Below, piece by piece: positions 1-15,360 of a stretch of DNA of 64,000 nucleotides (the stretch's first letter is position 1; each line of letters begins with the position of its first letter). A model generated the notes under the pieces. The model searched no databases. It had not been told where the DNA came from and saw only the letters and a program-made list of their open reading frames with translations. The DNA is taken from the NCBI GenBank assembly GCA_001701135.1, contig DAAN01000025.1, positions 14,744 through 78,743 of the forward strand. Direction: 5' to 3'. Both the position numbers and the translations under genes were made by a program. Source of the stretch: Bacteroidales bacterium H3. GTDB taxonomy: Bacteria > Bacteroidota > Bacteroidia > Bacteroidales > Muribaculaceae.

Positions 1-310
1 CTTTGAGCGGAGTGCTGCCGCGCACGACGGTCACCTTCCCGGTCTTCTTGTTCACACGCTCACGGTCTTTGGTCTGCATCTCCCGACCTGTCTTTTCCTT
101 TACCATCGCGGCTATCTGATTGTAGCGTTCCGACAGCGATGTGCCGCCGAAATCAGGTGCCACCCATGTCTCGTTTGCCGCCATGAGGTCGGTGCGGACA
201 TAGAACTTTTCCTTGCCGATATGTGCGAGGTATTCCGCTGTCCGCCTGTTGTGCGCCTCGCTGCTTCCGATGTTGCAGGGCTTGATGTTGATTGATGTCT
301 TCTGTGCCAT
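1..310 (-). CDS. MobV/Pre family relaxase, N-terminal part (runs off window)
   Basis: The reading frame is open from an ATG at 308-310 to the window edge, giving about 103 residues that begin MAQKTSINIKPCNIGSSEAH. The conserved N-terminal pattern of plasmid recombination/mobilization (Mob_Pre, MobV) proteins of Bacteroides mobilizable elements is recognisable: the SEAHNRR segment, NETWV, and a helix ending KEKTGRQMQ. This class nicks oriT and pilots the strand into a recipient, using conjugation pores supplied by another element. The C-terminal remainder is off-window. A MobV-like oriT lies upstream at 550-591, as expected for this family. I am confident of the family and cannot judge completeness. 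Confidence 0.8.
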   Translation of the reverse strand, partial: MAQKTSINIKPCNIGSSEAHNRRTAEYLAHIGKEKFYVRTDLMAANETWVAPDFGGTSLSERYNQIAAMVKEKTGREMQTKDRERVNKKTGKVTVVRGSTPLK

Positions 311-352
311 AGGCATGATGATGTTTACAGATTTACAATAGGGAAAGGGTTA

Positions 353-543
353 TTAGGGCGGAGCCTTAATCGGAGGGTGCAGGGAGAGGGTCACTTCCTG
401 CTCGGGGTTCTCAGGGGTCGAGACCTCTGAGCGGAGTTTCCAAAGAGAGGGTCACTCTTTGGTCAGGGGTGTTGGGGGCTGACAGCCTCCGACCGGGTTC
501 TTAGGGCAGAGCCATAAGTGGGACGGGGCAAAGCCCAGCCCCT
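353..543. repeat. run of seven consecutive short hairpins between oriT and mob
   Basis: This gene-free stretch is almost entirely short inverted repeats: 353-369, 379-401, 410-431, 440-462, 471-493, 500-518 and 526-536. The first and sixth share the palindrome TTAGGGCnGAGCCnTAA. The second and fourth share the loop text AGAGGGTCACT. They sit in the leader between the oriT candidate and the relaxase start, so they could act as relaxosome binding sites, as structure in the mob mRNA leader, or in lagging-strand priming. No function can be assigned from sequence alone. Confidence 0.7.
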
Positions 544-549
544 CGGGAG

Positions 550-591
550 AGCCCACAACTACGGAAGCGGAGCGTGTAGTTATAGTGGGCT
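550..591. other. candidate oriT of the MobV island
   Basis: An imperfect inverted repeat (AGCCCAC at 550-556 with GTGGGCT at 585-591, and AACTAC at 557-562 with GTAGTT at 576-581) forms a hairpin upstream of the relaxase gene. The right arm and following bases, AGTTATAGTGGGCTATA, resemble the pMV158-type MobV nick region, which reads roughly AGTATAGTGTGTTATA. Position and likeness both point to the transfer origin. The exact nick site is inference. Confidence 0.6.
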
Positions 592-674
592 ATATCTGGG
601 CAAGCCCAGTCAGCCACCCCACAACAACGGAGTACCGCTCAAAACCGCGCTCTGCGCTTCCCGGCCTGCCGAGC

Positions 675-1427
675 CTATGCCGGAGTAGCCTCGCCGCCAT
701 CCGTGCCGTCCTGCGCCTCGCTTTGGCTTCCTGTGCCGTTCTCGCCGGATGCTTCGTTACCGCTGTCTTTGATGTGCCGAGTAGCGGCTGTGTCCGCCAT
801 GAACATATCGGACGGCGGATTATGGCTGTCGCCGTCATGCACATCGGCTGACGTATTGGAACTGCCCGACAAAAGAAGGGAAGAAGGAAGGGATGTCGCG
901 CCTGTCGCAAGGCTGTCCGTTTCCTTCCCTCTTGTGTGGCAGTCAGCCGCTGCGCCTCCCGGTTCGTCCCCTGACGGCAGACTGTCGGAAACAGGTGTCC
1001 GCACATCGTCCGTCTGTCCTTTGGCGGTAGCCGAGGGTCTGACATAATGGGGATTGGTGACAAGGACACCTCCGACATACCAGCCAGTGAGAAAATGCAG
1101 GGAATGGACGGAAGTGCGGTTGTTGGTTCGGGTGGTCAGCATACCGAGGCGGTTGAAACTGTCGATTAGCTTGCCGACCGTCTTACGGTTGCAGTCCAAA
1201 AACTCTGCCAGTTCCACATCGGATGCCGCCACCTGTCCCACCTCCAGCACAATATCAATGCCCTTGATTTTATAAGCGGTTCTTGTCCGCACAGCACCGT
1301 TCATCAGGCGGTAGAGGCACTTTTGTCTGAGAGGGGAAAACCTGCCTTCCAAAAGAAAATCCCACTGTCCGGCTGAGAGTATGGTGCAGTAGTGGATGTT
1401 CTGTAAGTCTTGTCTGTTCTTGCACAT
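675..1427 (-). CDS. winged-helix-like protein of the mobilizable island, function unknown
   Basis: This 250-residue protein has two parts. Residues 1-120 are ordered, with a predicted helix-turn-helix around VAASDVELAEFLDCNRKTVG followed by a wing-like segment ending HSLHFLTGW. Residues about 130-250 are low-complexity, rich in S, T, G, D and E, and probably disordered. It is the last gene of the integrase-HTH-this gene run and sits 12 bp after the excisionase-like gene. It may be a replication or excision regulator of the island. I do not recognise a named family. Confidence 0.65.
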   Translation of the reverse strand: MCKNRQDLQNIHYCTILSAGQWDFLLEGRFSPLRQKCLYRLMNGAVRTRTAYKIKGIDIVLEVGQVAASDVELAEFLDCNRKTVGKLIDSFNRLGMLTTRTNNRTSVHSLHFLTGWYVGGVLVTNPHYVRPSATAKGQTDDVRTPVSDSLPSGDEPGGAAADCHTRGKETDSLATGATSLPSSLLLSGSSNTSADVHDGDSHNPPSDMFMADTAATRHIKDSGNEASGENGTGSQSEAQDGTDGGEATPA

Positions 1428-1439
1428 AGCCTGATGATA

Positions 1440-1844
1440 TTATGGTGCTACTGCGGACATCCGGCTGTTGCCGTCCGTCAATGCTTCCGGCTTGCGCTTC
1501 TTGCCGTTGCGCAGTTCCTCAAGCCGTCTTTCAATCTCGCTCTCGCTTGCCACTCCCGATGTGCCTCCCTGTTCAATCCATGCGATGATTTCATTCTTGA
1601 AGAAATAGAGCTTGTTGCCCCGCTTGTGGTACGGGATACGCTTGTCGGAAGTCATGGCATAGATGGTGGATGCCGATTTGCCGAGAAGTGCCGCGACTTC
1701 ATTAAGGGTGAGCAGGGTGCGACACTCGCCATGCTGCTGCGGTGTCATGCCGAGCACTTTCTCCACCTTGTCGGTGAGCAGCCCCACCTTTTCAATCAGC
1801 ATGGAGACCGCCTGCGGCAGTTGTTCAAATGTTATGTTGTTCAT
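1440..1844 (-). CDS. excisionase-like HTH (MerR/HTH_17) DNA-binding protein
   Basis: The 134-residue protein carries an HTH_17-type excisionase domain at about residues 43-95: a LTLNEVAALLGKSASTIYAM helix-turn-helix followed by IPYHKRGNKLYFFKNEIIAWIE. A short coiled helix precedes it. Proteins of this kind sit next to Bacteroides tyrosine integrases and act as directionality factors or transcription regulators. It lies 14 bp downstream of the integrase gene and is likely co-transcribed with it. Confidence 0.8.
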   Translation of the reverse strand: MNNITFEQLPQAVSMLIEKVGLLTDKVEKVLGMTPQQHGECRTLLTLNEVAALLGKSASTIYAMTSDKRIPYHKRGNKLYFFKNEIIAWIEQGGTSGVASESEIERRLEELRNGKKRKPEALTDGNSRMSAVAP

Positions 1845-1858
1845 ATACCGTTGTGTGT

Positions 1859-2971
1859 TTATTGCTGTTTGAGTGTAATCTGTTCGGATGCCTTGCGCTT
1901 CAGGTCGCTCACGACATCGACATAAATCTGTGTCGTTCCCACGTTGCTATGCGTAAGCATCTTTGAAATGGTGTAGAGGTCTGTTCCGGCGGCGAGTTGC
2001 AGGGTCGCGTAGGTATGCCTGAACCCGTGGAACGTGATGTGCTTCGTTATCCCGGCAGACTTAATCCAGTCCTTCAGATAGGTGGGCAGGATTGTCTTTG
2101 TCAGCCCCTTGAACACCTGACCCTCGCCGCGCTCGCCGCACAGTGCGAGTGCTTCGTCCGACAGCGGCAGCACGGCTTCCGTCCGGGTCTTCTTGGTGAC
2201 GATGTGCATGCACCAGCCGCCGTCCGCTCCCTTGACGATATTCTCCCATTGCAGACGGATGATGTCGCTGATTCGCAACCCTGTGAGGCAGGAGAACAGC
2301 GCGGCACTCCTTATGACAGGCTTCTCGCAAGGGGTCTCGGCAAGCATCCGCACCTCTTCAAGCGTCAGGAACTCGCGCCTTGTGCTGTCTTCCTTTGCGT
2401 GTTTCAGCCGTGGGGCGATGTTCTCCTTGATGCGTCTTTCCTCGTATGCGATGCGGAGGACGCATTTCAGCTTGTTAAGGTTGTTGTTGGCGGTCGAAGC
2501 CATCATCTTCCCCTTGGTCTGGGTGGTGAGCGACAGCAGGTAGGTAAGGAATCCCTGGCAGTATTCCAGTGTCAAATCATCGAATGTGCAGCTCCCGCAG
2601 CAATACTTTTCAAAATGCTTGTAGGCGGTGTTCCAGTTCCTGAAATTGTCATCGTCCGCCATTTTTGAGCGGAAGTATTCAAGAAAGCTCTCCTTGCCAC
2701 GGTTGCGGTCGAGGAAGCCGTACTCCTCGTTGATGATGGCTTCGGTTCTGCGACACTTGATAAGCTCGGCATTGCGGAGCATGGTCTTGTTGAACTCTGT
2801 CTCGAATTTGTCTTTCGGGTCGGCATAGATGTATATGCCGAGATATTCCCGTCTTGTCGGTTTTCCTGTCTTCGGATGCCGCACAGCCGGGTAATAGTCA
2901 AGGTAAAGAGATACCTGACCGTTCTTGATGGGTCGCTTCCTGACCGTCACTTTCGTGCAGATGTTTGTCAT
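1859..2971 (-). CDS. tyrosine recombinase (integrase) of the mobilizable island
   Basis: This 370-residue site-specific recombinase has the layout usual for Bacteroidales elements: an Arm-DNA-binding domain (about 5-85), a SAM-like core-binding domain (about 92-185) and a C-terminal catalytic domain. The catalytic residues are visible: Arg233 in TGLRISD, Lys about 260, His315 and Arg318 in HGFRHT, His341 in LTHSNVGTT and the nucleophile Tyr350 in QIYVDV. It should integrate and excise the island now sitting in traG. All catalytic residues are present, so the island may still be mobile. Confidence 0.92.
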   Translation of the reverse strand: MTNICTKVTVRKRPIKNGQVSLYLDYYPAVRHPKTGKPTRREYLGIYIYADPKDKFETEFNKTMLRNAELIKCRRTEAIINEEYGFLDRNRGKESFLEYFRSKMADDDNFRNWNTAYKHFEKYCCGSCTFDDLTLEYCQGFLTYLLSLTTQTKGKMMASTANNNLNKLKCVLRIAYEERRIKENIAPRLKHAKEDSTRREFLTLEEVRMLAETPCEKPVIRSAALFSCLTGLRISDIIRLQWENIVKGADGGWCMHIVTKKTRTEAVLPLSDEALALCGERGEGQVFKGLTKTILPTYLKDWIKSAGITKHITFHGFRHTYATLQLAAGTDLYTISKMLTHSNVGTTQIYVDVVSDLKRKASEQITLKQQ

Positions 2972-2985
2972 ATCGGTTGTGATTT

Positions 2986-3822
2986 TTAATTGTTGTCTGA
3001 TTCATTGTCCGGCTCTCGCTTGGCTTTCGTGCTTGCGCTTCTACCCTCGGCAACCTTGCGGGCAGCGTCCCAGTCAGCTTTGAGGTAGTACAGGCGGTTG
3101 CCGTGGATACGCTTCGTCCTTACCCCGTGGGTGAGCGCGAACCTGCGGACTTGGGTCTTTCCCAGCCCGAACAGGCGCATGATGTCGAAACAGGAATACC
3201 AGTGCTCCGACAGGTTGCTTCCCAGCCGTTCCGCTTCCTCAGCCATAGCCTTGTCAACCTCGGCTTTCGGGAAGCACTTGGTGGCGTTGGCTTTGACACA
3301 GGGTATCGAGTAGCGCATACGGAGATTGTAAAATCGCCCGTAGGTATAATTGTATTTCTGGCAAATCTCAGCCATCGTATAAAGGTCGCCTCCGGCACTT
3401 TCTTTGCCCGTGAACGTGTCCCTTACCGACTGTTTGTAACTGGATGCCGGAATGAGCTGCCGTTTCGGGCTGCCCTTCGCTTTCTTCTTTCCCTCCTTTT
3501 GGGAAAGGTCTTTTTCGGTGTTCGTTGTATCTTCGTTCATCTTCTTCTTTGTCTTTTTACGCTGCCCGGCGAAGATTGAAGCACTCCGCTTGCAGTAGGT
3601 TGTCTCCTTAATCATCAGAAAGAAATCCTCTTTGGTGATGATTGTGATGTGGTATGTCAGCCTGCAAGCCCGGAGAGTACCTTTGTATATGAGGTTATAC
3701 ACTGTGCGGCTGCTCACTTGCAGGATGTCCGCCACTTCCCCGATTGTGAGGAAAGGCTTGTCAGTCATGCCCCAGTCTGAGGCTGGCTGAACTGTTAAAA
3801 TGTGTTCAATTTGACGGTCCAT
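2986..3822 (-). CDS. HTH_17 domain protein upstream of the integrase
   Basis: From ATG 3820-3822 the protein is 278 residues. An in-frame ATG at 3919-3921 would add 33 residues of poor quality. An excisionase-type HTH near the N-terminus (FLTIGEVADILQVSSRTVYN, then ITKEDFFLMI) is followed by a basic Lys-rich linker and a second DNA-binding-like half that includes a FGLGKTQVRRFALTHG helix pair. Genes of this kind lie directly before integrases in Bacteroides mobilizable elements and probably control integration or excision. It ends 15 bp before the integrase. Confidence 0.75.
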   Translation of the reverse strand: MDRQIEHILTVQPASDWGMTDKPFLTIGEVADILQVSSRTVYNLIYKGTLRACRLTYHITIITKEDFFLMIKETTYCKRSASIFAGQRKKTKKKMNEDTTNTEKDLSQKEGKKKAKGSPKRQLIPASSYKQSVRDTFTGKESAGGDLYTMAEICQKYNYTYGRFYNLRMRYSIPCVKANATKCFPKAEVDKAMAEEAERLGSNLSEHWYSCFDIMRLFGLGKTQVRRFALTHGVRTKRIHGNRLYYLKADWDAARKVAEGRSASTKAKREPDNESDNN

Positions 3823-3835
3823 TATCGAAGAAATT

Positions 3836-3875
3836 TGTTGCACGCTCTTGAAAGCTGTTGCACGTTGCTGAAAGG
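3836..3875. repeat. two 20-bp direct repeats at the island end
   Basis: TGTTGCACG occurs at 3836-3844 and 3856-3864, each followed by a variant of (T)nCTGAAAG, giving two copies with 20-bp period. They lie between the HTH gene start and the predicted island end about 170 bp away. This spacing would suit arm-type integrase sites or an autoregulatory operator. Confidence 0.45.
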
Positions 3876-3989
3876 AAGTCGTGCCGTGTGACCCCTCTCG
3901 CGTGGTACAATAGCGGTACAAAAATACTCCGAAAAGGACGAATCGCCAAGAGGCGAAAATCTCGTTTGTTAAAATCTATTAGCTGAAAA

Positions 3990-5342
3990 TCAAGGTATTA
4001 TAACGTCGATTTTTGCAGCCGTTTGTCGCAGTTTTGCCCTTTGAAACTCCATGTGGAATGATTTGCCGCTGCCGCTTGGTCCGATACAGAAGAAGTTGGC
4101 GTTGTCGGTCATCTTTACCTTGCCCTCCTTGCCGGTTATGTCGATGCAGACAGGTAGCCCCCGGCGGTCGGTGTAATATGTGGTGAGCGGCGTGTCCTCA
4201 CACCCTTTGAGGTGTTCCTTGAAGACGAGGCACAGGGCGGCGTCCGATAATGTGAGGAAGAGGTCATAGTCGGGGTTGAAGCCATATGCGTTCCCCGGAA
4301 AGGAGTCTATGAAAAGCTCAAGCTGGTTGTAGGCCGTGCGCGACGGCATTATGCCGCACTCGTATAGCTTGGTTTCGAGGAACGAGGTCACTGGTGTTAC
4401 CTTGTCGGGCGCGCAACTCACTATGATGTTAAAGTTGGTGTTTACAAGCAATGATGAATCCACGGCCAGAATGTTCAGCACTTCCTCGATGTCGGCCTTG
4501 GCGATCTTGTTACTGGGGTCGGGCATCGAGCCGTGACGCTTCGCCTTGCCCTGTAGTTTGCGGAGCAGTTTCCGCTGGCCCGGTATCTGCACAACCTGGT
4601 TGAACACCACGCAGTCGGCGTGCGGCACTTCGGCGAGAAACGAAAGCACGTCGGTGGCTATCGGGTAGCCGTTGACGCTTGTTTCGGTATATGGCCTCAC
4701 CACCGACGGCAGGTTTATCTCGTCTATATCCACCAGAGGATACGAGCGGATTATGCGGTTCCCTGTTCTGAGGTATTCGTCGGAGGCCTTGAAATTCGTC
4801 ATGGAGAAAGCCCCGTGCCTGAAATGGAAGGCCATGAAGCGGTGGATGTACTCGGCGACCTCCGGCTTTGAGAGCCTGCGGTGCGCGATGCCTTTCTCCG
4901 AAAGTATGTCGTCCACCTTCGACACCTTGGAATGGAAGTCGAGCCACCGCTTGGGGTCGTACTGTACGAACTGCCCCCTTGGAGCTTCCTGCGTTATGAT
5001 GAGATATGTCGTTATCTCGGTGAACTCCCGGCCCTCGAAATATGCGAAATAGCTGCGCGTCAGGTATTCCGCACAGTCGGGCACCTCGTGGCGGTAGCTC
5101 TGGCGGCAGAATATGTCCTGCTTCTGAAGGGCGTACCCTTCGCCGAGGGTCTGCACGATATTGGCGAGGACGTCCTGAAAGAGCATATACCGCTCCGGGT
5201 CGGTGCATAGTCGCGGCACCGGGTTCGTCATGAAGAATACCACCGAGGGGGAGCCCTTGGCGTCGAACAGCACCACGTCGCCGCCCGTTTCCTCCAGTTG
5301 GGCGAATATGCCGTCAAAGACTTTTTTATGCGTTTTTGCCAT
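3990..5342 (-). pseudogene. traG: TraG-like (VirB4) conjugation ATPase, N-terminal half, interrupted
   Basis: The frame runs 450 residues from ATG 5340-5342 and matches the N-terminal half of Bacteroides TraG, the VirB4-class ATPase that powers the mating-pair channel. Members are usually about 800 residues. The segment reaches the Walker A motif GPSGSGKSFH at residues 421-430 and then switches to about 20 unrelated residues and a stop. Walker B and the C-terminal ATPase core are therefore missing here. The abrupt end coincides with the start of the MobV island, so the gene is split by insertion. Its 3' part should lie left of the window. Without TraG the ICE could not conjugate by itself unless the island excises precisely. 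Confidence 0.85.
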
Positions 5343-5345
5343 CTG

Positions 5346-5633
5346 TCAGCGTTTGAACAGGTTGTGATAAATGAAAATTCCACGGTCACGTTTCTTGTTG
5401 TGGAGTCCGCCGCGCTGCTTGACATAGATTGTCACCAACCCGACGGCGGCCATGACAAGCATGGCGACAAACCCGGCGAGCTTCCCCAGCGCGATCGAGA
5501 ACACGATGAACCCCACGAATGACACGCCTATCGCGGCTGCCGCCAGCGTCAGGAAGCGTCCACGGATTCCCATGAACTCCAGTGGTTTCTGTAACCCTTT
5601 GAAAACAGGGTAGCCATCGTTGTATGCCGCCAT
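5346..5633 (-). CDS. traF: conjugation protein TraF-like (DUF4133)
   Basis: The small membrane protein of 95 residues has two hydrophobic segments (about 27-52 and 53-72) and a KGLQKPLEFMGIRGRF motif before the first. This matches DUF4133 (TraF) proteins that sit between traE and traG in Bacteroides conjugative elements and are thought to be VirB3-like inner-membrane parts of the mating apparatus. It ends 3 bp before traG starts. Confidence 0.85.
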   Translation of the reverse strand: MAAYNDGYPVFKGLQKPLEFMGIRGRFLTLAAAAIGVSFVGFIVFSIALGKLAGFVAMLVMAAVGLVTIYVKQRGGLHNKKRDRGIFIYHNLFKR

Positions 5634-5657
5634 GAATGTAAGGTTTTCCGCTTCCGG

Positions 5658-6014
5658 CTACTTGAAGAAGAGCGGCAACGCCTCGCTCAGTGCGATGAAG
5701 GCGATACATCCACCGATGGTGAGCATGATGGTTTTCTTCACGTCCTGGTCGCCGTTCTGCATCTTGAAATAGACGTTAAAAGCTCCTACCAAGACAATTA
5801 CGGCTGCGATTGCCTTCATAAGATTGGAAACAGGGGTCTGGTAGGAGCTGACCTCCTGCGTGGCTTTCGTGAAGCCGGCCGCACCCTTGCTGGCAGCCAT
5901 AGCGTCGCCGGCGGCCACTGTGACGGCGGCGAGCGCGAGCGTGCCCTTGCGGGCGAAACCTGAGCGGCTGAAACGTGCCAACGCCCTCAGGCATTTTGTT
6001 TTGATCTTTTGCAT
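5658..6014 (-). CDS. traE: conjugation protein TraE-like (DUF4134)
   Basis: From ATG 6012-6014 the protein has 118 residues. An upstream in-frame ATG at 6060-6062 gives a less plausible leader. A Lys/Arg-rich start and a hydrophobic stretch (GTLALAAVTVAAGDAMA) look like a signal peptide. Two further hydrophobic helices follow (MKAIAAVIVLVGAFNVYF and MLTIGGCIAFIALSEAL). This is the DUF4134/TraE pattern, a VirB2-like pilin-sized membrane protein. It is the next gene upstream of traF. Confidence 0.85.
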   Translation of the reverse strand: MQKIKTKCLRALARFSRSGFARKGTLALAAVTVAAGDAMAASKGAAGFTKATQEVSSYQTPVSNLMKAIAAVIVLVGAFNVYFKMQNGDQDVKKTIMLTIGGCIAFIALSEALPLFFK

Positions 6015-6179
6015 TTGCGATGATATTCGTTTTTGAAAAAAGTTATCGGGCGGTAAAGACAATGCAGTGCGTTAAAGACAGCTTCGGGCGATAAAGGCAG
6101 TATTACAAGGAGATAGTCATAAAGCCGAATTGAGAAAAGTTTACATAGTGATAAGTCAGATTGGTGGTCGGAGTCGCAA

Positions 6180-6548
6180 TCATGCGGCAGCCTCACATTT
6201 CGCAACTATCAAGCCGAGACCCAGGAGTTCGACATCCTCAGTTTTAGAGATATTGCGGGCGCGGTTGACAAGCATATCCACAGGTATGCCGTTTGTCATC
6301 ACAGGCTCCCTCGTTTGCGTCGCTTCGGGCACCGCCTTTTTGCCGGATGCTTTCGGGGAATGGCTGTCACGCAGGATTTCAACAGCCTTGAAAGACCCGG
6401 CTTCACCGGATATGTCTATCTCCGCCTCTTCGGGTGTAACACCCTCTTTCGGCAGGGCCGCCGGCTTTATGAAAAGGTCGAGGCATATAAGCCCTATATA
6501 GTACAATATAAGTATGGCGGTCAGATATGACAGTATTGTTCCGAACAT
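6180..6548 (-). CDS. TraD-like conjugation protein with one N-terminal membrane helix
   Basis: The 122-residue protein starts with a transmembrane helix (about 5-26, LSYLTAILILYYIGLICLDL) and continues with a polar domain ending in a short conserved-looking segment (DVELLGLGLIVAKCE). Position between the HTH protein and traE matches traD (DUF4122-like) of Bacteroides elements. Sequence support for that family is weak, so the name is positional. Its start overlaps the upstream gene by 28 bp, indicating translational coupling. Confidence 0.65.
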   Translation of the reverse strand: MFGTILSYLTAILILYYIGLICLDLFIKPAALPKEGVTPEEAEIDISGEAGSFKAVEILRDSHSPKASGKKAVPEATQTREPVMTNGIPVDMLVNRARNISKTEDVELLGLGLIVAKCEAAA

Positions 6549-7141
6549 TTTGTTTGCAGATTATGGTTTTGTGAATTATGTGTTTGCGGCAATGGCCGGA
6601 ATACCAGACCGAGCGAGGTTCCCGTGTCTTCCCTCCGGGTACTTCTCGCACTGCCGGGGGTGAAATATATTATGTCGCTGCCTCTCTCGACGATATATCC
6701 CGATTGCTTGAGGCGGTGGCGCAGGCATACACGCCTCCGGTCGGCGGTGACTTTCACTTTGGAAACAGGGGCAAGCCCTATGCGCATACGCAGCCTCTCG
6801 CGCCTGACAATTTCCCTGCGCTTCGCGGAAATGAATCCGGCGGAGTCTGAGGTGGCTCGTGCCAGACCGTGGCGGTCGGCTATGCGGATCACTGTCCGCA
6901 CCGACACACCGGCCATGCGTGAAAGTTCGGAATACGGGTGGTTCCCATAATTTTCAAGTATCGTCCTTGTCGCTGCGGCGCGTCGGGACCCGTAAACTTT
7001 TTCAAGCCCGAGTTCGGCGGCTTTTGCCGCGACCAGCCTCGTCCCTATGCCAAGCCGTGCTGCTATGGATGCATTGGTAGCTGTCGGGAACAGTCCGCGT
7101 AGTGTGCGCAGCATTTCTTCGTTCCAGATTATCTTTCTCAT
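6521..7141 (-). CDS. DNA-binding HTH protein in tra operon, function unknown
   Basis: The 206-residue basic protein carries two helix-turn-helix-like segments: residues about 5-50 (NASIAARLGIGTRLVAAKAAELG) and about 60-95 (YSELSRMAGVSVRTVIRIADRHG). A third basic region, SAKRREIVRRERLRMRIGLA, follows. It occupies the traC position of the operon but is not obviously a DUF3408 protein. It may regulate tra expression or contribute to partition or relaxosome binding. The pattern resembles homing-endonuclease-associated HTH repeats, without a visible nuclease domain. Confidence 0.65.
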   Translation of the reverse strand: MRKIIWNEEMLRTLRGLFPTATNASIAARLGIGTRLVAAKAAELGLEKVYGSRRAAATRTILENYGNHPYSELSRMAGVSVRTVIRIADRHGLARATSDSAGFISAKRREIVRRERLRMRIGLAPVSKVKVTADRRRVCLRHRLKQSGYIVERGSDIIYFTPGSARSTRREDTGTSLGLVFRPLPQTHNSQNHNLQTKCSEQYCHI

Positions 7142-7157
7142 AATATGATTGGTGTTA

Positions 7158-7526
7158 CTATGTGATGTCGAGTAGCGAGCGGTTGTTTCTCTTGTACTGC
7201 CGGAGCCTGTCGATATACCGTGTTATGAATGTCCTGACTATCGCGTTGACTATATCGGACCGGCATTTTCGGTCTATGTCGCAGGCGTCCAGCGAGTCTG
7301 CAAGATCGCGGTCGAGCCTGCATATCATACGTTCGTCCTTGCGCTCCCTGAAATTATACAGGTCGAGATTGCGTCTGAAAAGCTCCCAGTCGTCATCGGC
7401 CGGGGACTCTGCCGGAGGAGCCTGTGCTTCTGGCATATCCGGAACGGGTGCGGATGTGCCGGGCACAAGGTTTCCGAGACCTCCAAGCAGCTCGTCCAGT
7501 TTGGGGTAGTTCGTTTCCTGGTTCAT
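7158..7526 (-). CDS. DUF3408-like TraB/ParB-type partner of the ParA protein
   Basis: The 122-residue protein has a Pro/Ala-rich N-terminal half and a C-terminal ribbon-helix-helix-like segment (ERMICRLDRDLADSLDACDI then a helical SDIVNAIVRTFITRYIDRLR). This resembles the small DNA-binding DUF3408 proteins encoded right after traA in Bacteroides conjugative elements. It overlaps the ParA-like gene by 4 bp. A role as the DNA-binding partner of the ATPase is inferred from this arrangement. Confidence 0.6.
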   Translation of the reverse strand: MNQETNYPKLDELLGGLGNLVPGTSAPVPDMPEAQAPPAESPADDDWELFRRNLDLYNFRERKDERMICRLDRDLADSLDACDIDRKCRSDIVNAIVRTFITRYIDRLRQYKRNNRSLLDIT

Positions 7527-8218
7527 TCTTCTGTGTTTGGTGTTCCTGTGATATCATTATATATGTGGTCGAAAGCCGGTGACACTATGAGAAGCTGGCC
7601 GTCCATATCGAAAATTGTGCTGAAACGGCGCAAGGACTGGCGTTTATATACCGTCGGGGCTATGCGGACGTGCTGCCTGAATTTCTCGTTGACAAGGCTC
7701 CACAGTCCCTTCTCCTCCTTTGTCCCCACACCCGGCTCCTCCAGATTGGGGATTATATAGTGGACGGTTGTCATGGCATTGCCGAGGCTGCGCCTCAGTT
7801 CCACAACCACGGCGACGAACACGGCGGTCGAGGGAACGGTCAGGTTGTCGTAGTGGAACGGGGTCAGCAGATAATCGGAATTGGCGAAAAGAGCCAGCAA
7901 CGCCTGGTCGTTGAGACTCCCGGCGGAATCGAAAAGGACGAAATCGACGCTCCCGGCGTTGCGTAGGTTGCCTATGAGGGAGAGTAACGCCTGTTCGTTG
8001 GTGAGGCTGAAGGGATATACGCTGTAAGGCAGAGGCATCCCGGCGTATGCGGCAGAATCGGAGGTCCGCTTCTTCACGATTGATTGCTGGGGGTCGGTGT
8101 CGAACACCGCCACACTGTGACCCTTGCTGACGAGATAGCTCGCGAAAAGTGCGCAGAGGGTGGTCTTGCCGACGCCCCCTTTCTGGTTGGCGAATGTGAT
8201 TATACAGGTCTGGTCCAT
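7523..8218 (-). CDS. traA: TraA-like ParA-family ATPase
   Basis: This 231-residue protein has the deviant Walker A of ParA/MinD ATPases (KGGVGKTT at residues 13-20), a DTDPQQS switch and a FVLFDSAG Walker B region. In Bacteroides conjugative elements the first tra gene encodes such a ParA homologue. It may support element maintenance or positioning of transfer DNA. It is the first gene after the promoter cassette at 8240-8290 and overlaps the next gene by 4 bp. Confidence 0.9.
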   Translation of the reverse strand: MDQTCIITFANQKGGVGKTTLCALFASYLVSKGHSVAVFDTDPQQSIVKKRTSDSAAYAGMPLPYSVYPFSLTNEQALLSLIGNLRNAGSVDFVLFDSAGSLNDQALLALFANSDYLLTPFHYDNLTVPSTAVFVAVVVELRRSLGNAMTTVHYIIPNLEEPGVGTKEEKGLWSLVNEKFRQHVRIAPTVYKRQSLRRFSTIFDMDGQLLIVSPAFDHIYNDITGTPNTEE

Positions 8219-8239
8219 TTTGAGACTGGCGGTTGGTTT

Positions 8240-8290
8240 GCGGCAAAATTATCACGGGGCGATTGCTAAATTGGAAATTCCGAACATTTT
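8240..8290 (-). promoter_or_regulatory. tra operon promoter/operator cassette
   Basis: A minus-strand -7 box TAATTTTG (8244-8251) lies 26 bp before the traA start. The surrounding 50 bp are 38/50 identical, with no gaps, to 10624-10673 upstream of the mob operon. Shared blocks include ATGTTCGGAATTT and TTAGCAATCG, while the segments between them differ. Such conserved blocks suggest one regulator binding both sites. Confidence 0.65.
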
Positions 8291-8393
8291 TCATTATTCT
8301 ATGACAGGATAATGTGTTGAAAATGTCATCGGATTATATGATAGCACCGTCATGGCGCACCGTGTGTCACCGGATAGAAGTCGCAGTTGTCCG

Positions 8394-9950
8394 TCAGCGT
8401 TTCATTGAGGTATCTTCGTCTATGCGGTCATAGTCGCCTTTGTAGCCGACCTCCCACTCCCGGTTGTCGCCCCTGCCGGCTCCGGCATCGCGAATCTGCC
8501 TTATTCCGGAATTGCCCTTGCGGGGTGACAAGGCATCCTGTTTCCGTCCAAGCGTATTCTTCCGGTATTGCAGCCTCCTTATGTCGAAGCCTTCGGACAC
8601 GAGGTTTATAAGCACATGGGCTTTCAGGTCAACAGCGTAGGTGTAGCCGTCTATGTCACGGATTGAAAAGCCGGCATCGCGGAATATCCGCCGGGGTATA
8701 TACCCGGTGCCGTTGTCGAATATCTCTTTAAGATCAAGAACCCTGTTGCCGTATGCCGCGCTTCGAGGACTTGAAATATCCACAAGGTGCGGAGCCGTAA
8801 TCCTGCCTATGCCGCACAAAAAGTCTCGCTCTGCTTCGGTGGCCGGGGAGAACGATTCGACCCAGCGGATACGGTTGTTCCGCTTCAACGCTTCCCACAT
8901 ATGGGGCCGGAGCTGCCGGGGCTCTCCATTGCGGTGCAGACAGCCTCCTTTGACATATGCGCGGTACTGTCGTGAGAGAATATCGTTCAGTTCCGGAATT
9001 GTCATTTTGGGGTTGTCTGCAAGCAGGGTGTCTATCTGCGCCTCGATGCGCGAGAATCTTTCATCGGCTGTCGAGAAGTCAAGCAGTTCCTTTATCGGAT
9101 ATATCTTGCCGCCGTTGATTACCGATTTCTTGTTGTGGTCGATTATCATGTAGCCGTATGGAGAATCGGATTTGCCGAAAAACACAAGCTCGATGCCGAA
9201 TTTACGCCTCATTTCCTCTGCAAGCTCCCTGCGGTTGGCCGTCAAGTCCCGGTATTTGGAGAACAGAGCCCTGAGCTGCCGCCTGCGCTGTCTGTCAAAT
9301 GTAGTTTCCCGGAAATGGCGGCTTATCTCCTCCAACGGCACGTCAAGGCACACCGCGCCGCCACGCTTTATCGACACTTTTCTGTCATTCTCGTAACATT
9401 CATATCCGAGGGAGTTCATAAGGGCCTTGTACTGGGTAACCGATGCGAATTTGTAGCCCAGGGCTGCCTCCATGTCCTGACGGGCTTTCTCCCGGGCATC
9501 GTTCCCCAATATCCTGTCGATAACGCGCTGCGACCTCACGCGCTCGTGGCTGTGGTCTATCTTCCTGCCGTCGGGTGCCACGCGGGATGTTATCACATGG
9601 ATATGCGTGTTGTCAGTGTCGGTATGGCCGTAAACAAGCAACGGCTGGCTGGGTTCGCCGTAACCCATCTGCCGCAGATACTCGTGCGCGAAGTCCAGAA
9701 GCTCCCGCTCTGTGTTCTCATGCCCCTTGCAGGAGAAGGCTATATGAAACTGTGCCTTGCGGATTCTCGTGTTTCTGGCCGAGTAGCTTTCAAGATACGC
9801 AGCGAGGTCGTCAGGAGTCGGACGCTCCATCGCCTCGACCAGCCCGAAGTTCTTTATCTCCAGCAGGTGTGCCACACCCTTTGCCACCTTCCGCTCGTTG
9901 TAGCCTACGGCATGGAAGGTTGTGCTTGAAGGAAGTATTGTCGCTATCAT
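8394..9950 (-). CDS. mobB: ICE relaxase (MobB-like, MOBP relaxase/mobilization nuclease)
   Basis: The 518-residue relaxase has the three-histidine metal motif at H109, H116 and H118 (HTDTDNTHIHVITSRV). A nearby tyrosine-containing N-terminal motif (HAVGYNERK) is a candidate nucleophile region. This enzyme nicks the ICE oriT and leads the transferred strand. It lies 96 bp downstream of the MobA-like gene, as in other Bacteroides elements where mobA and mobB form an operon. A candidate oriT sits upstream at 10507-10564. Its C-terminal part (about 250-518) has no motif I can name. Confidence 0.85.
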   Translation of the reverse strand: MIATILPSSTTFHAVGYNERKVAKGVAHLLEIKNFGLVEAMERPTPDDLAAYLESYSARNTRIRKAQFHIAFSCKGHENTERELLDFAHEYLRQMGYGEPSQPLLVYGHTDTDNTHIHVITSRVAPDGRKIDHSHERVRSQRVIDRILGNDAREKARQDMEAALGYKFASVTQYKALMNSLGYECYENDRKVSIKRGGAVCLDVPLEEISRHFRETTFDRQRRRQLRALFSKYRDLTANRRELAEEMRRKFGIELVFFGKSDSPYGYMIIDHNKKSVINGGKIYPIKELLDFSTADERFSRIEAQIDTLLADNPKMTIPELNDILSRQYRAYVKGGCLHRNGEPRQLRPHMWEALKRNNRIRWVESFSPATEAERDFLCGIGRITAPHLVDISSPRSAAYGNRVLDLKEIFDNGTGYIPRRIFRDAGFSIRDIDGYTYAVDLKAHVLINLVSEGFDIRRLQYRKNTLGRKQDALSPRKGNSGIRQIRDAGAGRGDNREWEVGYKGDYDRIDEDTSMKR

Positions 9951-10046
9951 GTTGTTATCTCTCTATGGCTTTATCGCTTGCCGTGGCAAGAGAATATCAG
10001 ACTGTTACAAAATCGGAGTATCGTATTATGCAGTTATCCCTCACTG

Positions 10047-10448
10047 TTACTTTCTGTTTCTCAGGATACCGCGTACTGTCATGCTCACAATATCGGAGTG
10101 TTCGGCTATCATTTTATCTATCGCTCCCTTTATCTGTTGTATGGACGGTAGCAATAACTCTTTATAATATGTCTCGTTCATCAGACCTGCAACTGCAAGC
10201 TCATTGGCGCGTTTCATGGCCTGATTGAGATTGCCGCCGGCCCATCCGAGTTCATCCTTGTGTTTGCGGTAGAAGGAGGTCATAAGTTCCACGGCTTCCA
10301 TACGGCTCTTCATATCCCTGTCGGAAAACTCCGCTATTGCCAGACGGATATATGAGCTTATACTGCTGAAGCCCTTGGCCCTCTCTTTGAGCCGTTCAAG
10401 CTCCGTGTCGGTGAATAGTATCTCTATTCTGTTGGTTCTCTTCTCCAT
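10047..10448 (-). CDS. mobA: MobA/MobC-like relaxosome accessory protein
   Basis: The 133-residue protein starts with a ribbon-helix-helix-like segment (NRIEILFTDTELERLKERAK) followed by long helices containing a conserved-looking GNLNQAMKRANE motif, characteristic of MobA/MobC relaxosome proteins. Such proteins bind oriT and help the relaxase melt it. It is the first gene of the mob operon, with about 170 bp of leader containing the oriT-like hairpin. Confidence 0.85.
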   Translation of the reverse strand: MEKRTNRIEILFTDTELERLKERAKGFSSISSYIRLAIAEFSDRDMKSRMEAVELMTSFYRKHKDELGWAGGNLNQAMKRANELAVAGLMNETYYKELLLPSIQQIKGAIDKMIAEHSDIVSMTVRGILRNRK

Positions 10449-10506
10449 GATTCAAGTGATTAAAAATCGGCGAGTCGCGAGCTGATTTGCCCCGGACGGA
10501 ACGGGC

Positions 10507-10564
10507 GGCAAGTTACTTTTCATCGGTAAAACGCAGTTTTATCCGGGGAAAAGTACAACTTGCC
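10507..10564. other. candidate ICE oriT (nested inverted repeat)
   Basis: An outer inverted repeat (GGCAAGTT-ACTTTTC at 10507-10521 with GAAAAGT-AC-AACTTGCC at 10548-10564) encloses an inner hairpin (CGGTAAAAC at 10524-10532 with GTTTTATCCG at 10536-10545). It lies 59 bp upstream of the mobA start, the usual place for an oriT in Bacteroides conjugative elements. No T-run follows on either strand, so it is unlikely to be a terminator. Confidence 0.55.
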
Positions 10565-10623
10565 TGACAAATTCTACACCATAGGTTCGCCCCGGTCAGG
10601 TTCGCTCCAGCCTCTCCTTCGGT

Positions 10624-10673
10624 CGGCGAAATTAGCACGCCCCGATTGCTAACACACAAATTCCGAACATAAT
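10624..10673 (-). promoter_or_regulatory. mob operon promoter/operator cassette
   Basis: This is the second copy of the cassette described at 8240-8290. Its -7 box reads TAATTTCG on the minus strand (10627-10634). Transcription would start near 10617 and run through the oriT-like hairpin into mobA. Confidence 0.6.
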
Positions 10674-11007
10674 CTTTGTATCACTATCCCGAATATCACG
10701 GTTGCCGATTACCGTATAATCGGATAACCACGGTATATGATATTCACATTATCCGATGGCTCGTTTATCCTTCAAAACGGTTATGGCATATCATTTTCAA
10801 TATATAATCACATACAGCCATAATGATGTGGAAAAGCATATTATTATCGGATTATCAAGGTATTAAATGATAAAATAGTTGCTTTATTTCTTGCATATGT
10901 CGTTGAAAATTAGTATATTTACATACTTGGAGCGTCGCTTCGAGCGATAGTCCGGCTATGTGGCAGTCACATTGTCGGACAGTCATAACATCATAATATC
11001 TCTGACT
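10674..11007. promoter_or_regulatory. AT-rich ICE control region with repeated ATCGGAT sites
   Basis: This gene-free stretch contains several relatives of TnATCGGATnA: 10716-10727, 10748-10757 (inverse) and 10842-10854. A further related site lies near 8328 before the tra operon. They may be binding sites of an element-encoded regulator. A weak plus-strand promoter (TATATTTAC near 10914) could drive the small membrane gene that follows. Confidence 0.4.
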
Positions 11008-11220
11008 ATGTTTCAGCTTCTATTGATAATATATCTGTTGCCCGTAGTGATAATCGCGGTATTGCTTATCCGCCTTATCCGACGGCTGCTCTCGCTCGCC
11101 CTGCGGTTCATACGTTGGGCTGTGCCCCGATTATTCCGGCTTGCCGTGCGGCTGCTTGTGCTTGGTTGGCATGGGGGGCGTTATCTGTGGCGGTATTACC
11201 GTCGCCGGACTGCGCCGTAG
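11008..11220 (+). CDS. small cationic membrane protein of the ICE, unknown function
   Basis: The 70-residue protein (86 if the ATG at 10960 is used) has a hydrophobic N-terminal helix (MFQLLLIIYLLPVVIIAVLL) followed by an unusually Arg-rich amphipathic tail (RLIRRLLSLALRFIRW onward). It is the only plus-strand gene in the visible ICE and lies just outside the mob operon, divergent from it. I do not recognise a family. It could also be a chance reading frame. Confidence 0.45.
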   Translation: MFQLLLIIYLLPVVIIAVLLIRLIRRLLSLALRFIRWAVPRLFRLAVRLLVLGWHGGRYLWRYYRRRTAP

Positions 11221-11333
11221 AAATTTCGCAGCGAGGGAAAAGAGAGGAACGGGCTTAGACTTCTCCCTTTGGCGAGTCTCTTGCGATCGTGCGTCACGGA
11301 GGCTTAAAACCGCCGCTTTTCGGGGATATGTGC

Positions 11334-11559
11334 GCCACCTTTTCAGCCACCTTCACCGACACCTTTCCAGCCACTTCTTCCGCCACCTTTTCGGACACCT
11401 GTTCCGACACATCTACCGACACTGATACTGACACTTTTACATACACCCTTGGGGACACTTCTTCGGACACCTTTGGGGACACTTTTGGGGACACCCTTAC
11501 AGACACCTTTTCCGCCACTTTTTCGGCCTATGTGCGCCACCTTTTTAGACACCTCTTCG
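11334..11559. repeat. 12-bp tandem repeat array near the ICE end
   Basis: Sixteen consecutive 12-bp units of consensus GACACCTTTTCC (variants GCCACC..., GACACTTTTGGG) fill 11334-11525. After a 10-bp interruption there are two or three more units to about 11559. The motif TATGTGCGCCACC precedes both blocks. Because 12 is a multiple of three, reading frames stay open on both strands (tetrapeptides like DTFS on plus, EKVS/KVAE on minus), so open frames are not evidence for a gene. The array diverges between units, which argues for an old expansion. Confidence 0.85.
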
Positions 11560-11897
11560 GACCCCTTCGGCAAGCCTCCAAATAGCCCTGATTTACCCCC
11601 ACCACGGAGTGCGAACTCTTCCGGTCTTTCGGGCGTTTCCATAGCAGAAGCCGCCCTTGCTCAGTGTTAAATATTGTTTAATTGGGCTATATTTGTAAAA
11701 TAATTGTTAAATTTGGACATTGGATTGAAGATGGCTGAAATCGAGGTAAAATCGGGGCCTGAAAAAGTACCGAAATGTGGTACATCCCGTGGTACATTGC
11801 CACTCTATCATGTTCTATAACAAATTGGAGATCAAAATAATAGCCGAGGCAAAACGAAGCGCACTCGGATCACCAAAGGGTCCATCAGACCACAGAA

Positions 11898-11938
11898 GAC
11901 CTCTGAAAATCGCTGATTTTCAGAGGTCGTTTCTTTTT
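11898..11938 (+). terminator. intrinsic terminator in ICE terminus
   Basis: A perfect 14-bp stem (11898-11911 with 11915-11928) with a 3-nt loop is followed by GTTTCTTTTT. It would stop rightward transcription about 370 bp before the ICE end. It may end a short transcript starting in 11700-11880, or insulate the element from the host gene. Confidence 0.7.
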
Positions 11939-11985
11939 GACCCGCCCCGCTACGGCGCAAAATATTGAAATATCCGGTGTGCATT

Positions 11986-12237
11986 GAGGGTGCAACGATT
12001 TCGGCACCTCAAATTGCACCCTTTTGTCGATATATTTCATTATTTTTCAGCGATTTGCATCAAACACACTCTCAAAGCGGCTGCACCCTCGGCGTGGGGC
12101 CGAAATGGGGTTCTGCAAGTGGGGCTTATCCATTTTCAAGGCACGGTCAGATTCGCGTTTAGATTTTTTAACGCTTTCGCCATTTTACTTAGGAATGAAA
12201 ACGGAGTGTTAAAAAAGGGTGCAAATCGAGGGTGCAA
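11986..12237. repeat. five GGGTGCAA-type sites, candidate integrase arm sites
   Basis: The decamer (A/G)AGGGTGCAA occurs at 11986-11995 (+), 12014-12023 (-), 12082-12090 (-, 9 of 10), 12215-12224 (+) and 12228-12237 (+). All five lie within 320 bp of the ICE/GH3 junction. Tyrosine integrases of conjugative elements bind comparable short arm-type repeats in attL and attR. That role here is inference. Confidence 0.5.
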
Positions 12238-12305
12238 ACCGGCGAAATCCGACGAAAATCAGCTTTCACCACCCTCTTTCCATTCCGATATTCATTTGTC
12301 TTCGG

Positions 12306-12653
12306 GTAGATGCATGGAATGCCGATTTCGCGCATCGACGCTTCCTGAATCTTGCCGATCACCTCGTTCCATTCCTGTGGCGTGAGCGAGTGCTGCGGCG
12401 CATTGAGGATGGATCCCACTTTGTATTTGCCTATGATGGAATCAAGCATCCCGGGGTGGTAGACAAGTTTGCCGTCGGGTTCCCGATGGCATATCAGGTC
12501 GATGGCAAGCTCTGTCATCTGGCCTATTTTTTCGTCAAGGGTCATGCGGGCGAGTGTCTGTTCCACCTGTTTTTCGATGGATACGTCGCGGGGTATCGCA
12601 GGAGCGGTGGCGCTTGCCGCAGCAAGAGCCACCGCTATTGCCATGCCCGTCAT
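12306..12653 (-). pseudogene. GH3 beta-glucosidase-like gene, 5' fragment cut by the ICE
   Basis: From ATG 12651-12653 the frame gives an N-terminal secretion-like segment (MTGMAIAVALAAASATAPA) and then the GH3 N-terminal hallmark: VEQTLARMTLDEKIGQM followed by ...REIGIPCIY. GH3 proteins normally continue for over 700 residues. Here similarity ends at the Tyr codon 12306-12308, and unrelated codons lead to a stop at 12189. The ICE end lies at this point. The gene begins 33 bp after the esterase stop and would have been its operon partner. Confidence 0.8.
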
Positions 12654-14025: not shown

Positions 14026-15360
14026 ATACTACTGGTGCGATAAAATCGCGTTAGTTTAGAAATCATCAAATAAAGAGAGTTCTTTGACATTTTGATTTGA
14101 ATTGATTGACAAGTCTTGCTTGGTTAGAAGTTGTCGTAACTCGACACGTTCCAAAGCAGAGATTCTGATCAGGGTTGCCACTTCGGTTATAGAATAGCAG
14201 CTTTTATAATCGATCTTTATTCGAGCGACCGTGAGATAGGCAATGACAGCAGTCCAAAGATGGATTTTTACAGCGTTCTCGGAAAATCCCCAAAGGGTCT
14301 TAACGACAATATTCTGTTTAATCCATTTGAAGAAAACTTCTATATCCCAGCGATGGCGGTAGAGATTGGATATCACCAAGGCGCTGACCTCAAAGTTGTT
14401 GGATATGAAATCCACAATTGTGTCATTGTCCGGGTCATATACCCGTACAAACCGCATGTCATCAGGATAGAGTTTACTCGACTTATATCCGGTGACCCGA
14501 ATCCGGGAGTCTTCTATGATGCCGGACTTTGCATCGGGGATTTCCATTTGCCCGATGGTCATGAACTTCATGTTCTCTTTCGGACGAGATACCCAGAATG
14601 CCTGTGTCTGATGGAATCTGAATAAAGCCTTGAAGTCGACATAAGCCTTGTCCATCACATAGAAAGCGAATGGTTCCGGCGACAGCATGTCAAGTTCGTT
14701 GCTGTCATGCCATTTCCCATCGGTGATATGGATGTTGGCCGGTATGCTTCCACGCAAATCAAGCAATGTGTGCACCTTTACAGCGCCTTTGCTGTATTTG
14801 CCCAATGCCCATGCCGCAAGCTTTATGCTGGTTGATATGGTTGTAGAGTCCAAAGCATATATTACGTTGTCTATGGTTATGTCGGACAGTTTAGTCTTTG
14901 AATACATGGGTCTTACCAGTCCTATGAGATAAATGCCCAGCCCTTCAAAAATTCGATAGTCACGACTTTCGTTAGCCCGCGACAATGATGTGTGGTTGAC
15001 CGTTTTTCGAAAACCGAGATGATATAGCATTTTTGAATGAGCCTCCAGACATAGACAGATGTCTCGTGGCGAATCACAGCCTGTCAGCTGTCCGAAGAGC
15101 AGATGAAGGAGGAGATTGTAACTGTTGAGATTCTTTACATGCCAGTCTCCTTTATACACCCTTACAAGCTTATCGAACTGGTAGCGCGGTATAAAATCGA
15201 TTATCTGGGAGAAAACATACTTACCCTGATTCATAATCTTGATGTTTGGGGACAACAAGACTAATAAATCAATTTCAAATCAAAAAATCAATGTACTCTT
15301 GTATTTAATTAAATACTAATATTTTAATAACAGTGGTCAGATTTTTATCGCACCACTACT
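14026..15360. mobile_element. IS4-family insertion sequence
   Basis: One transposase gene is framed by terminal inverted repeats. The left end (14026-14045) and the reverse complement of the right end (about 15343-15360) share GGTGCGATAAAA preceded by ACTACT/AGTAGT. A long target duplication is not evident; only AAT flanks both tips. The element sits between the esterase gene and the GH20 gene. Confidence 0.8.
14056..15258 (-). CDS. IS4-family transposase
   Basis: This 400-residue DDE transposase has Asp137 (ALDSTT), Asp203 (YVMDKAY) and Glu307. The IS4 signature Y-(2)-R-(3)-E-(6)-K is exact at Tyr300, Arg303, Glu307 and Lys314. The N-terminal 80 residues match the DNA-binding region common to Bacteroides IS4 elements. 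All catalytic residues are present and the gene is uninterrupted, so the element may be active. Confidence 0.93.
   Translation of the reverse strand: MLSPNIKIMNQGKYVFSQIIDFIPRYQFDKLVRVYKGDWHVKNLNSYNLLLHLLFGQLTGCDSPRDICLCLEAHSKMLYHLGFRKTVNHTSLSRANESRDYRIFEGLGIYLIGLVRPMYSKTKLSDITIDNVIYALDSTTISTSIKLAAWALGKYSKGAVKVHTLLDLRGSIPANIHITDGKWHDSNELDMLSPEPFAFYVMDKAYVDFKALFRFHQTQAFWVSRPKENMKFMTIGQMEIPDAKSGIIEDSRIRVTGYKSSKLYPDDMRFVRVYDPDNDTIVDFISNNFEVSALVISNLYRHRWDIEVFFKWIKQNIVVKTLWGFSENAVKIHLWTAVIAYLTVARIKIDYKSCYSITEVATLIRISALERVELRQLLTKQDLSINSNQNVKELSLFDDF

What the first reader, a model, noticed from the sequence alone, without database searches (positions are those of the whole stretch)
1..12653. Three-layer nested insertion: mobilizable island in an ICE in a glycosidase gene
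A MobV island lies inside traG of a conjugative element, and that element's end lies inside a GH3 gene. Each junction is marked by a conserved protein motif that stops abruptly (Walker A of TraG, the IPCIY segment of GH3). The island is therefore a parasite that has disabled the transfer apparatus of its own vehicle unless it excises precisely.
Basis: partly seen in the sequence, partly recalled or inferred. Interest (0 to 1): 0.72.

Follow-up and report, generated by a model that had tools for sequence, protein, structure and literature searches.

The report
Hitchhiker island that splits traG
A small mobile DNA island sits inside a larger self-transmissible element, cutting the gene for one of that element's DNA-transfer ATPases at its ATP-binding motif, and close relatives of the island sit at exactly the same spot in many different gut Bacteroidales elements.

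Summary
Outer layer: a Muribaculaceae GH3 gene stops at 12306, where foreign DNA with an ICE-type terminal region begins; two relatives carry the gene uninterrupted. Inner layer: an integrase-bearing mobilizable island cuts the ICE's VirB4-type traG at a 9-bp core, 4050-4058 (TTCCACATG on the coding strand), directly after the Walker A codons. Of 18 relatives whose island junction could be read, 14 sit at this traG position in diverse ICEs and 4 elsewhere. In 9 both ends were delimited: islands of 6.8-10.2 kb, traG resuming beyond, the core duplicated in 8. One uninterrupted traG matches an occupied copy 500/500 bp on each side with exactly 9 bp between. Island and traG relatedness are uncorrelated (r 0.07), so insertion has recurred. 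I read it as a traG-targeting IME that must excise before its ICE can transfer; excision was not observed. The window's own far ends lie outside it and no genome is held. 'MobV' is not supported by Pfam. Comparable Firmicutes IMEs, and one Bacteroides traG interruption, are published.

The parts
1..4049 (-). Part of the mobilizable island (integrase end present, other end outside the window)
   Evidence: DNA 94.5% identical to L001 over 4051 bp and 88.4% to L002 over 5390 bp, the latter running on into traG; boundary from 14 relatives
2..316 (-). First 105 codons of a mobilization (relaxase-like) protein, cut by the window edge
   Evidence: Homologues in L010/L002 are 526 and 518 aa with an HRDE...NLHAHI stretch; the L010 protein is 44% identical to a plasmid 'mobilization protein' and 68% to a plasmid 'hypothetical protein'; Pfam Relaxase below cut-off
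539..606 (.). oriT candidate: hairpin-forming segment upstream of the mobilization gene
   Evidence: 94% identical in 7 plasmids, and at 81-92% wholly or partly covered in 4 more; upstream of the mob gene in CP103138; hairpin near 557-581 also in L001, L003, L004, L005, L007, L008, L155, L156; window 500-640 folds with z -2.96
675..1427 (-). Conserved island protein with weak HTH signal, function unknown
   Evidence: No Pfam/NCBIfam family at 0.001; homologue in L010 HTH only at E 0.018; counterparts in L010 and L002
1440..1844 (-). HTH_17 excisionase-type protein
   Evidence: PF12728 E 1.3e-14; TIGR01764 excise 4.5e-09
1859..2971 (-). Tyrosine integrase, 370 aa, frame intact
   Evidence: PF00589, PF13102, PF17293; 88-99% identical relatives in 19 loci, frame full-length in L001-L014
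2986..3921 (-). Second HTH/excisionase-like protein at the island end
   Evidence: PF12728 E 4.6e-15, TIGR01764 4.1e-08
4050..4058 (-). 9-bp recombination core TTCCACATG (traG codons Phe-His-Met after GPSGSGKS), attL
   Evidence: Same core at 13 of 14 traG junctions, CATATG variant at 1 (L006); at both ends in 8 of 9 islands delimited at both ends; position
4050..5342 (-). 5' part of traG (VirB4-type ATPase), cut after Walker A; the frame runs on to 3990 in island DNA
   Evidence: TIGR03783 8.4e-23, PF19044 positions 5-50; C-half of the L010 copy matches TIGR03783 and VirB4/TraC-type families
5346..10448 (-). Rest of the visible ICE transfer module: traF/E-type frames (names recalled from gene order), ParA-type (7523-8218), MobB-like relaxase (8394-9950), NikA-like (10047-10448, below Pfam cut-off)
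   Evidence: Pfam/NCBIfam; collinear with the L002 ICE to 11557 at 74%
11866..12305 (.). ICE-type terminal region (inverted repeat 11898-11928, GGGTGCAA repeats) up to the GH3 boundary
   Evidence: L135 71% over 11866-12314; L137 in pieces 11867-12049, 12205-12236 and 12291-12305; both run on into an integrase gene, not into GH3; repeats
12306..12653 (-). 5' part of a GH3 gene cut after IPCIY; host chromosome begins here
   Evidence: L064 and L065 carry the uninterrupted gene, alignments stop at 12306

Best explanation
[quoted passage not shown] It rides in its helper: it integrates into the ICE's own transfer ATPase gene, silencing that ICE's transfer while integrated; on excision by integrase plus an HTH excisionase one copy of the 9-bp core is left, traG is whole again, and the island circle can be nicked at its oriT by its own mobilization protein and leave through the pore of the same or another ICE, then enter an ICE in the recipient. 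Shown: site, precision, recurrence, variable cargo, natural uninterrupted counterparts. Inferred: excision, transfer block, mobilization.
For: 14 of 18 readable relatives at one traG position. 9 of 14 with both ends placed, 6.8-10.2 kb, traG resuming at Phe-His-Met; TTCCACATG at both ends in 8, CATATG variant in L006. L004 flanks 100% identical (500+500 bp) to uninterrupted traG L189 with exactly 9 bp between; L009 and L014 99.4/99.2% to L163. Same island (99.4% over 9755 bp) in traG genes 55.6% alike (L006/L009); different islands (88.6%) in the same traG (100%) (L009/L014); nearly the same island in two traG genes of one genome (L003/L017); r 0.07 over 105 pairs. The four off-site islands lie in genomes without an FHM-type traG site. 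Integrase, excisionase-like genes, mobilization gene and oriT-like hairpin. TTGTACC arm-like motifs about 137 and 148 bp from the core on one side (9 of 9) and 59 bp (51 in L006) on the other (8 of 9). A 67%-identical integrase also sits in traG behind Phe-His-Met (L098).
Against: No circle, attP or excision product was seen; relaxase and oriT roles rest on homology and a hairpin, and the plasmid protein annotated as mobilization protein (L155) has no Pfam relaxase hit either. Five of 14 traG loci lack a far end delimited beside the core: in L015 the traG C-half is on the same contig but about 28 kb away, for the other four none was found in the stretch held. Four of 18 islands are not in traG. 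Integrases of L015, L016 and L018 are broken. In 60 genomes of the genus of G001, 26 of 27 pattern sites were unoccupied (the pattern misses L098's occupied site), so the site is usually free. The window's own far end is unseen.
Confidence: 0.75

Rival explanations
1. Remnant: the islands are dead cargo trapped in decayed ICEs, and traG was lost because the ICE no longer transfers.
For: 3 of 19 integrases are broken: L015 split by another element, L016 broken near the same place, L018 with an early stop.
Against: Integrase frame full-length in the window and in 14 of 19 loci (L001-L014; L017 and L019 are cut by contig ends); island 99.4% identical between ICEs whose traG are 55.6% alike; occupied and uninterrupted traG 100% identical next to the core. 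Recent movement is required.
Confidence: 0.08
2. Split but working TraG: the N-part and a C-part started at the ATG of the core assemble into an active ATPase, so the island is neutral for its ICE.
For: The core ends in ATG, so the C-half begins with an in-frame start in L002 and L010 (ORFs of 514 codons).
Against: The cut falls directly behind Walker A, where the P-loop helix starts (general knowledge of the fold); no split VirB4 is known to me (recalled).
Confidence: 0.1
3. Chance insertion of a low-specificity element, traG being merely a neutral landing place.
For: Four of 18 islands lie elsewhere.
Against: 14 of 18 at one position in traG genes as little as 52% alike; off-site cases only in genomes where no FHM-type site was found.
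Confidence: 0.02

Closest known systems
Firmicutes IMEs in traG, maff2 or snf2 of Tn5252-family ICEs (PMC5357655, passages; PMC5704250, passages and section 3.5)
   Same: IME integrates site-specifically inside a conserved conjugation gene of an ICE and disrupts it; restoration by excision on ICE induction is proposed in those texts
   Different: Those traG-targeting IMEs use serine integrases and their traG encodes the VirD4 coupling protein; here a tyrosine integrase and a VirB4-type ATPase cut behind Walker A, in Bacteroidales
CTn214 of Bacteroides fragilis (PMC10865816, passages)
   Same: An 11-gene operon with tyrosine recombinases and mobilization genes interrupts traG of a Bacteroides conjugative transposon
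   Different: It carries btgA/btgB, two recombinases and a TonB receptor; described as one case. Position within traG not given in the passages I read, so identity of the site is untested
IMEs in the oriT of Tn916/ICESt3 ICEs (PMC7563843, search listing with start of abstract)
   Same: IME uses an ICE's own transfer locus as its site
   Different: Target is oriT DNA, not an ATPase gene; other host phylum
Tn4555, Tn5520, NBU1 of Bacteroides (PMC5704250, table passages)
   Same: Bacteroides IMEs; Tn4555 and Tn5520 listed with tyrosine integrases
   Different: Tn4555 is listed with two preferred sites and Tn5520 with AT-rich regions; for NBU1 only relaxase, helpers and excision needs were seen. 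None of these passages names a conjugation gene as site

Membership tests
Integrative and mobilizable element (IME) | Own integrase and direct repeats at the ends | tested here: met
   Integrase; TTCCACATG at both ends of 8 of 9 islands delimited at both ends, CATATG in the ninth. Tested on relatives; the window shows one end only
Integrative and mobilizable element (IME) | Own relaxase and/or oriT | tested here: inconclusive
   Homology to plasmid proteins 44-68%, one annotated mobilization protein; Pfam Relaxase below cut-off; oriT only as shared hairpin
Integrative and mobilizable element (IME) | No own mating-pore genes | tested here: met
   None recognised among the ORFs listed for L002 and L010 nor among cargo proteins scanned from 10 islands; not every island ORF was scanned
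Integrative and mobilizable element (IME) | Excises and is mobilized | not testable with these tools
   Only indirect: uninterrupted counterparts and recurrence
MobV relaxase family | Match to Mob_Pre profile | tested here: not met
   No Mob_Pre hit at E up to 10 for the L010 and L002 proteins (HMMER filters drop most weak hits)
Bacteroidetes ICE (TraA-Q type) | TraG/VirB4 ATPase, MobB-like relaxase and tra cluster | tested here: met
   TIGR03783, PF03432 and a MobB hit below its cut-off, synteny with L002; the ICE's other end is outside the window

The most novel reading that the evidence does not exclude
The island is a molecular lock on its vehicle. In all 14 traG cases it points the same way as traG, with its excisionase-like and integrase genes next in line, so induction of the ICE's transfer operon would read into the island, trigger excision and rebuild traG; the ICE can then transfer only from cells in which the island is free and ready to leave. 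Parasite and helper are synchronised by gene architecture alone, through the ATP-binding motif of the transfer ATPase.
Probability: 0.3. Interest if true: 0.75.

Novelty: new variant of a known kind. Interest (0 to 1): 0.6.

Why it matters
It extends ICE-targeting IMEs to Bacteroidales and to a VirB4-type ATPase, and offers natural pairs (same traG with and without the island, same island in different traG genes) that make the question of hitchhiker versus saboteur directly testable. Choosing codons next to a P-loop gives the element a target kept across ICEs whose traG genes are otherwise as little as 52-56% alike. It also warns that split traG calls in gut genomes may be reversible interruptions, not pseudogenes.

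Tried and rejected
Own genome: none held. Plasmid and phage DNA searches gave only the mob/oriT-like part. Viral contigs gave one 51% integrase, not pursued. Wider integrase searches: 34 of 393 genomes of the order and 23 of 60 of the genus of G001 passed E 1e-80, most of the matches at 38-54% identity; of the 59 loci fetched from them (L066-L124, about 1.5 kb of flank or less; some listed matches were not fetched) TraG lay beside the integrase in 3: L066 (= L002), L097 (= L010) and L098. L067, 67% identical like L098, showed none. A Bacteroides-type promoter pattern (consensus recalled) and a terminator scan found nothing on the coding strand between core and integrase (T-runs without a called stem occur in 6 of 15); a TAnnTTTG-like stretch is visible by eye in the sequences, so an own promoter is not excluded. 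The strict pattern for unoccupied sites matched 4 of 393 Bacteroidales genomes; 2 are TraG (L130, L131), the other 2 read GKW and were not examined; it cannot see occupied sites and gives no occupancy rate. The PDB search with the mobilization protein gave nothing useful. A special preference of the ICE for GH3 was neither shown nor excluded. My first check of the L137 end failed to find it (wrong pattern, and the frames printed for L137 there are not its flank); one search corrects it.
Full report
What is in the window. Reading on the minus strand, the window holds a host GH3 gene cut at 12306, then an ICE-type terminal region (to about 12305), the ICE's mobilization and tra genes (10448 down to 4050), and then an island that starts inside traG at the core 4050-4058 and runs off the window at base 1. 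Island genes visible: two HTH/excisionase-like proteins, a tyrosine integrase of 370 aa, a conserved protein of unknown function and the first 105 codons of a mobilization protein.

The traG junction. The integrase found 19 loci in 17 genomes, 88-99% identical. In 18 of 19 the island end by the integrase can be read (L019 begins inside the integrase). In 14 of 18 the DNA outside the island is traG, and the cut is at the same codon, after GPSGSGKS (GSSGSGKS in L015), with TTCCACATG (Phe-His-Met) at the joint in 13 and a CATATG variant in one, L006. L001, L005, L007 and L018 sit elsewhere. In 9 of the 14 the other end was delimited on the same contig: traG resumes at Phe-His-Met, and the island measures 6820 to 10150 bp. 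In L015 the C-half is also on the contig, about 28 kb away, because the island carries a further insertion. For the other four (L003, L012, L016, L017) no far end was found in the stretch held.

Uninterrupted sites. TraG genes of this type (FHM type) run through the site with a single core: 9 in 6 of the 17 island genomes, and 26 of 27 pattern matches in 60 genomes of the genus of G001, two of them (in G017) also among the 9; the 27th is the occupied G010. The frame stays open for at least 341 codons past the site in these 26, though three (L170, L171, L184) stop at 341-363 codons, earlier than their kin. That pattern cannot see L098, an occupied site with a 67%-identical integrase. The traG of L004 is 500/500 identical on either side to L189, with exactly 9 bp between; L009 and L014 are 99.4 and 99.2% identical to L163, again 9 bp apart.

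Recurrence. Over 15 traG-borne islands (14 loci and the window; 105 pairs) the identity of 2.2 kb of island end (1.9 kb for L017) and of 900 bp of traG does not correlate (r 0.07). L006 and L009 carry the same island (99.4% over 9755 bp) in traG genes 55.6% alike; L009 and L014 have the same traG (100%) with islands 88.6% alike; L003 and L017, both in genome G003, carry nearly the same island in traG genes 55.6% alike. The island therefore moves on its own, repeatedly, into this one place.

Specificity. No FHM-type site was found in any of the four genomes whose island lies off-site: G001, G005, G007 and G016 have 0 matches, and only full-length PF19044 matches (2 in G001, 1 in G007, 5 in G016) or none (G005). 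Three of the five in G016 were judged by score, not read; G005 is a 1.6-Mb MAG. The other common TraG type reads GKSFFTN or GKSFFMN and lacks the site. Off-site insertion thus looks like a fallback when no target is present, but four cases are few, and the L018 integrase is broken. Arm-like TTGTACC motifs lie at near-fixed distances from the core at both ends, as expected for a tyrosine integrase with arm sites (general knowledge).

Mobilization. The L010 mobilization protein is homologous to two plasmid proteins (44% and 68%) and only weakly to Pfam Relaxase (E 0.009; 0.034 for L002; below cut-off); Mob_Pre does not appear, so 'MobV' should be dropped. Upstream lies a 68-bp stretch shared with Bacteroides and Phocaeicola plasmids, beside the mob gene in CP103138, in a region that folds well. 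A strict hairpin pattern found it in 7 of 20 island copies (window and 6 of L001-L019, some of which do not hold that stretch). I call it an oriT candidate only. Cargo beyond mob differs between the 10 islands sampled: MFS and ABC proteins, a flavin reductase, DUF4377 proteins, a methylase with a restriction-like protein, and others.

The outer layer. GH3 in two Muribaculaceae relatives is whole (frames of 780 and 784 codons), and foreign DNA begins at 12305. The stretch before it is an ICE-type terminal region: L135 matches it at 71% to 12314, and L137 matches in pieces up to 12305, the last shared letters being TTTGTCTTCGG. In L135 and L137 an integrase gene follows at once, and L144 looks alike there. 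I read this as one element's end joined to the head of another (tandem or accreted), with 12305 a true end, but an ICE that lost its integrase side here is not excluded. The host is placed in Muribaculaceae by flanking matches of 70-79% DNA identity in the eight best (207 of 397 genomes matched, none close enough to be the same species).

How it works. Shown: precise, recurrent, directional insertion behind Walker A. Inferred: TraG is inactive while split; precise excision restores it; the island leaves through an ICE pore. A proposal of the same kind was made for Firmicutes IMEs (PMC5704250 section 3.5, read; PMC5357655, passages), and a review says that co-integration may let such elements control their helper's transmission (PMC11389934, passage). 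In all 14 traG cases the integrase points the same way as traG, so tra transcription could run into the excision genes; no terminator-like site was found between them on that strand, but such scans are weak and an own promoter is possible. This is the boldest reading left open.

Print record. Searches of the held library, and the passages or section read from five papers found by them (PMC6907783 had nothing on this point), gave IMEs in VirD4-type traG (Firmicutes) and one traG interruption in Bacteroides (CTn214, PMC10865816), but no family of IMEs aimed at a VirB4-type traG. The library lacks most subscription journals.

Noticed in passing
L128 about 3780 to L129 about 2721 (genome G013, same contig as L015): The integrase gene of one traG-island is itself split near its HxxR codons by an element of about 18 kb that carries further tyrosine recombinases; L016 is broken near the same place by other DNA.
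   Followed up: partly
window 11324-11538: Array with a 12-bp period in the ICE near its end, with similar sequence in the L002/L063 ICE.
   Followed up: no
window 11866-12305; L135, L137, L144: Terminal region with inverted repeat and GGGTGCAA repeats; the 671-bp stretch around it matches in 56 of 397 Muribaculaceae genomes, and in L135 and L137 an integrase gene follows directly.
   Followed up: partly
window 14056-15258: Frame of 400 codons that looks like an insertion-sequence transposase just beyond the GH3 gene (by eye, no family search).
   Followed up: no
L006 junctions: This island used an alternative core, CATATG, where its target reads TTTCATATG, giving a shifted junction; L018's off-site junction is also at a TATG.
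   Followed up: partly
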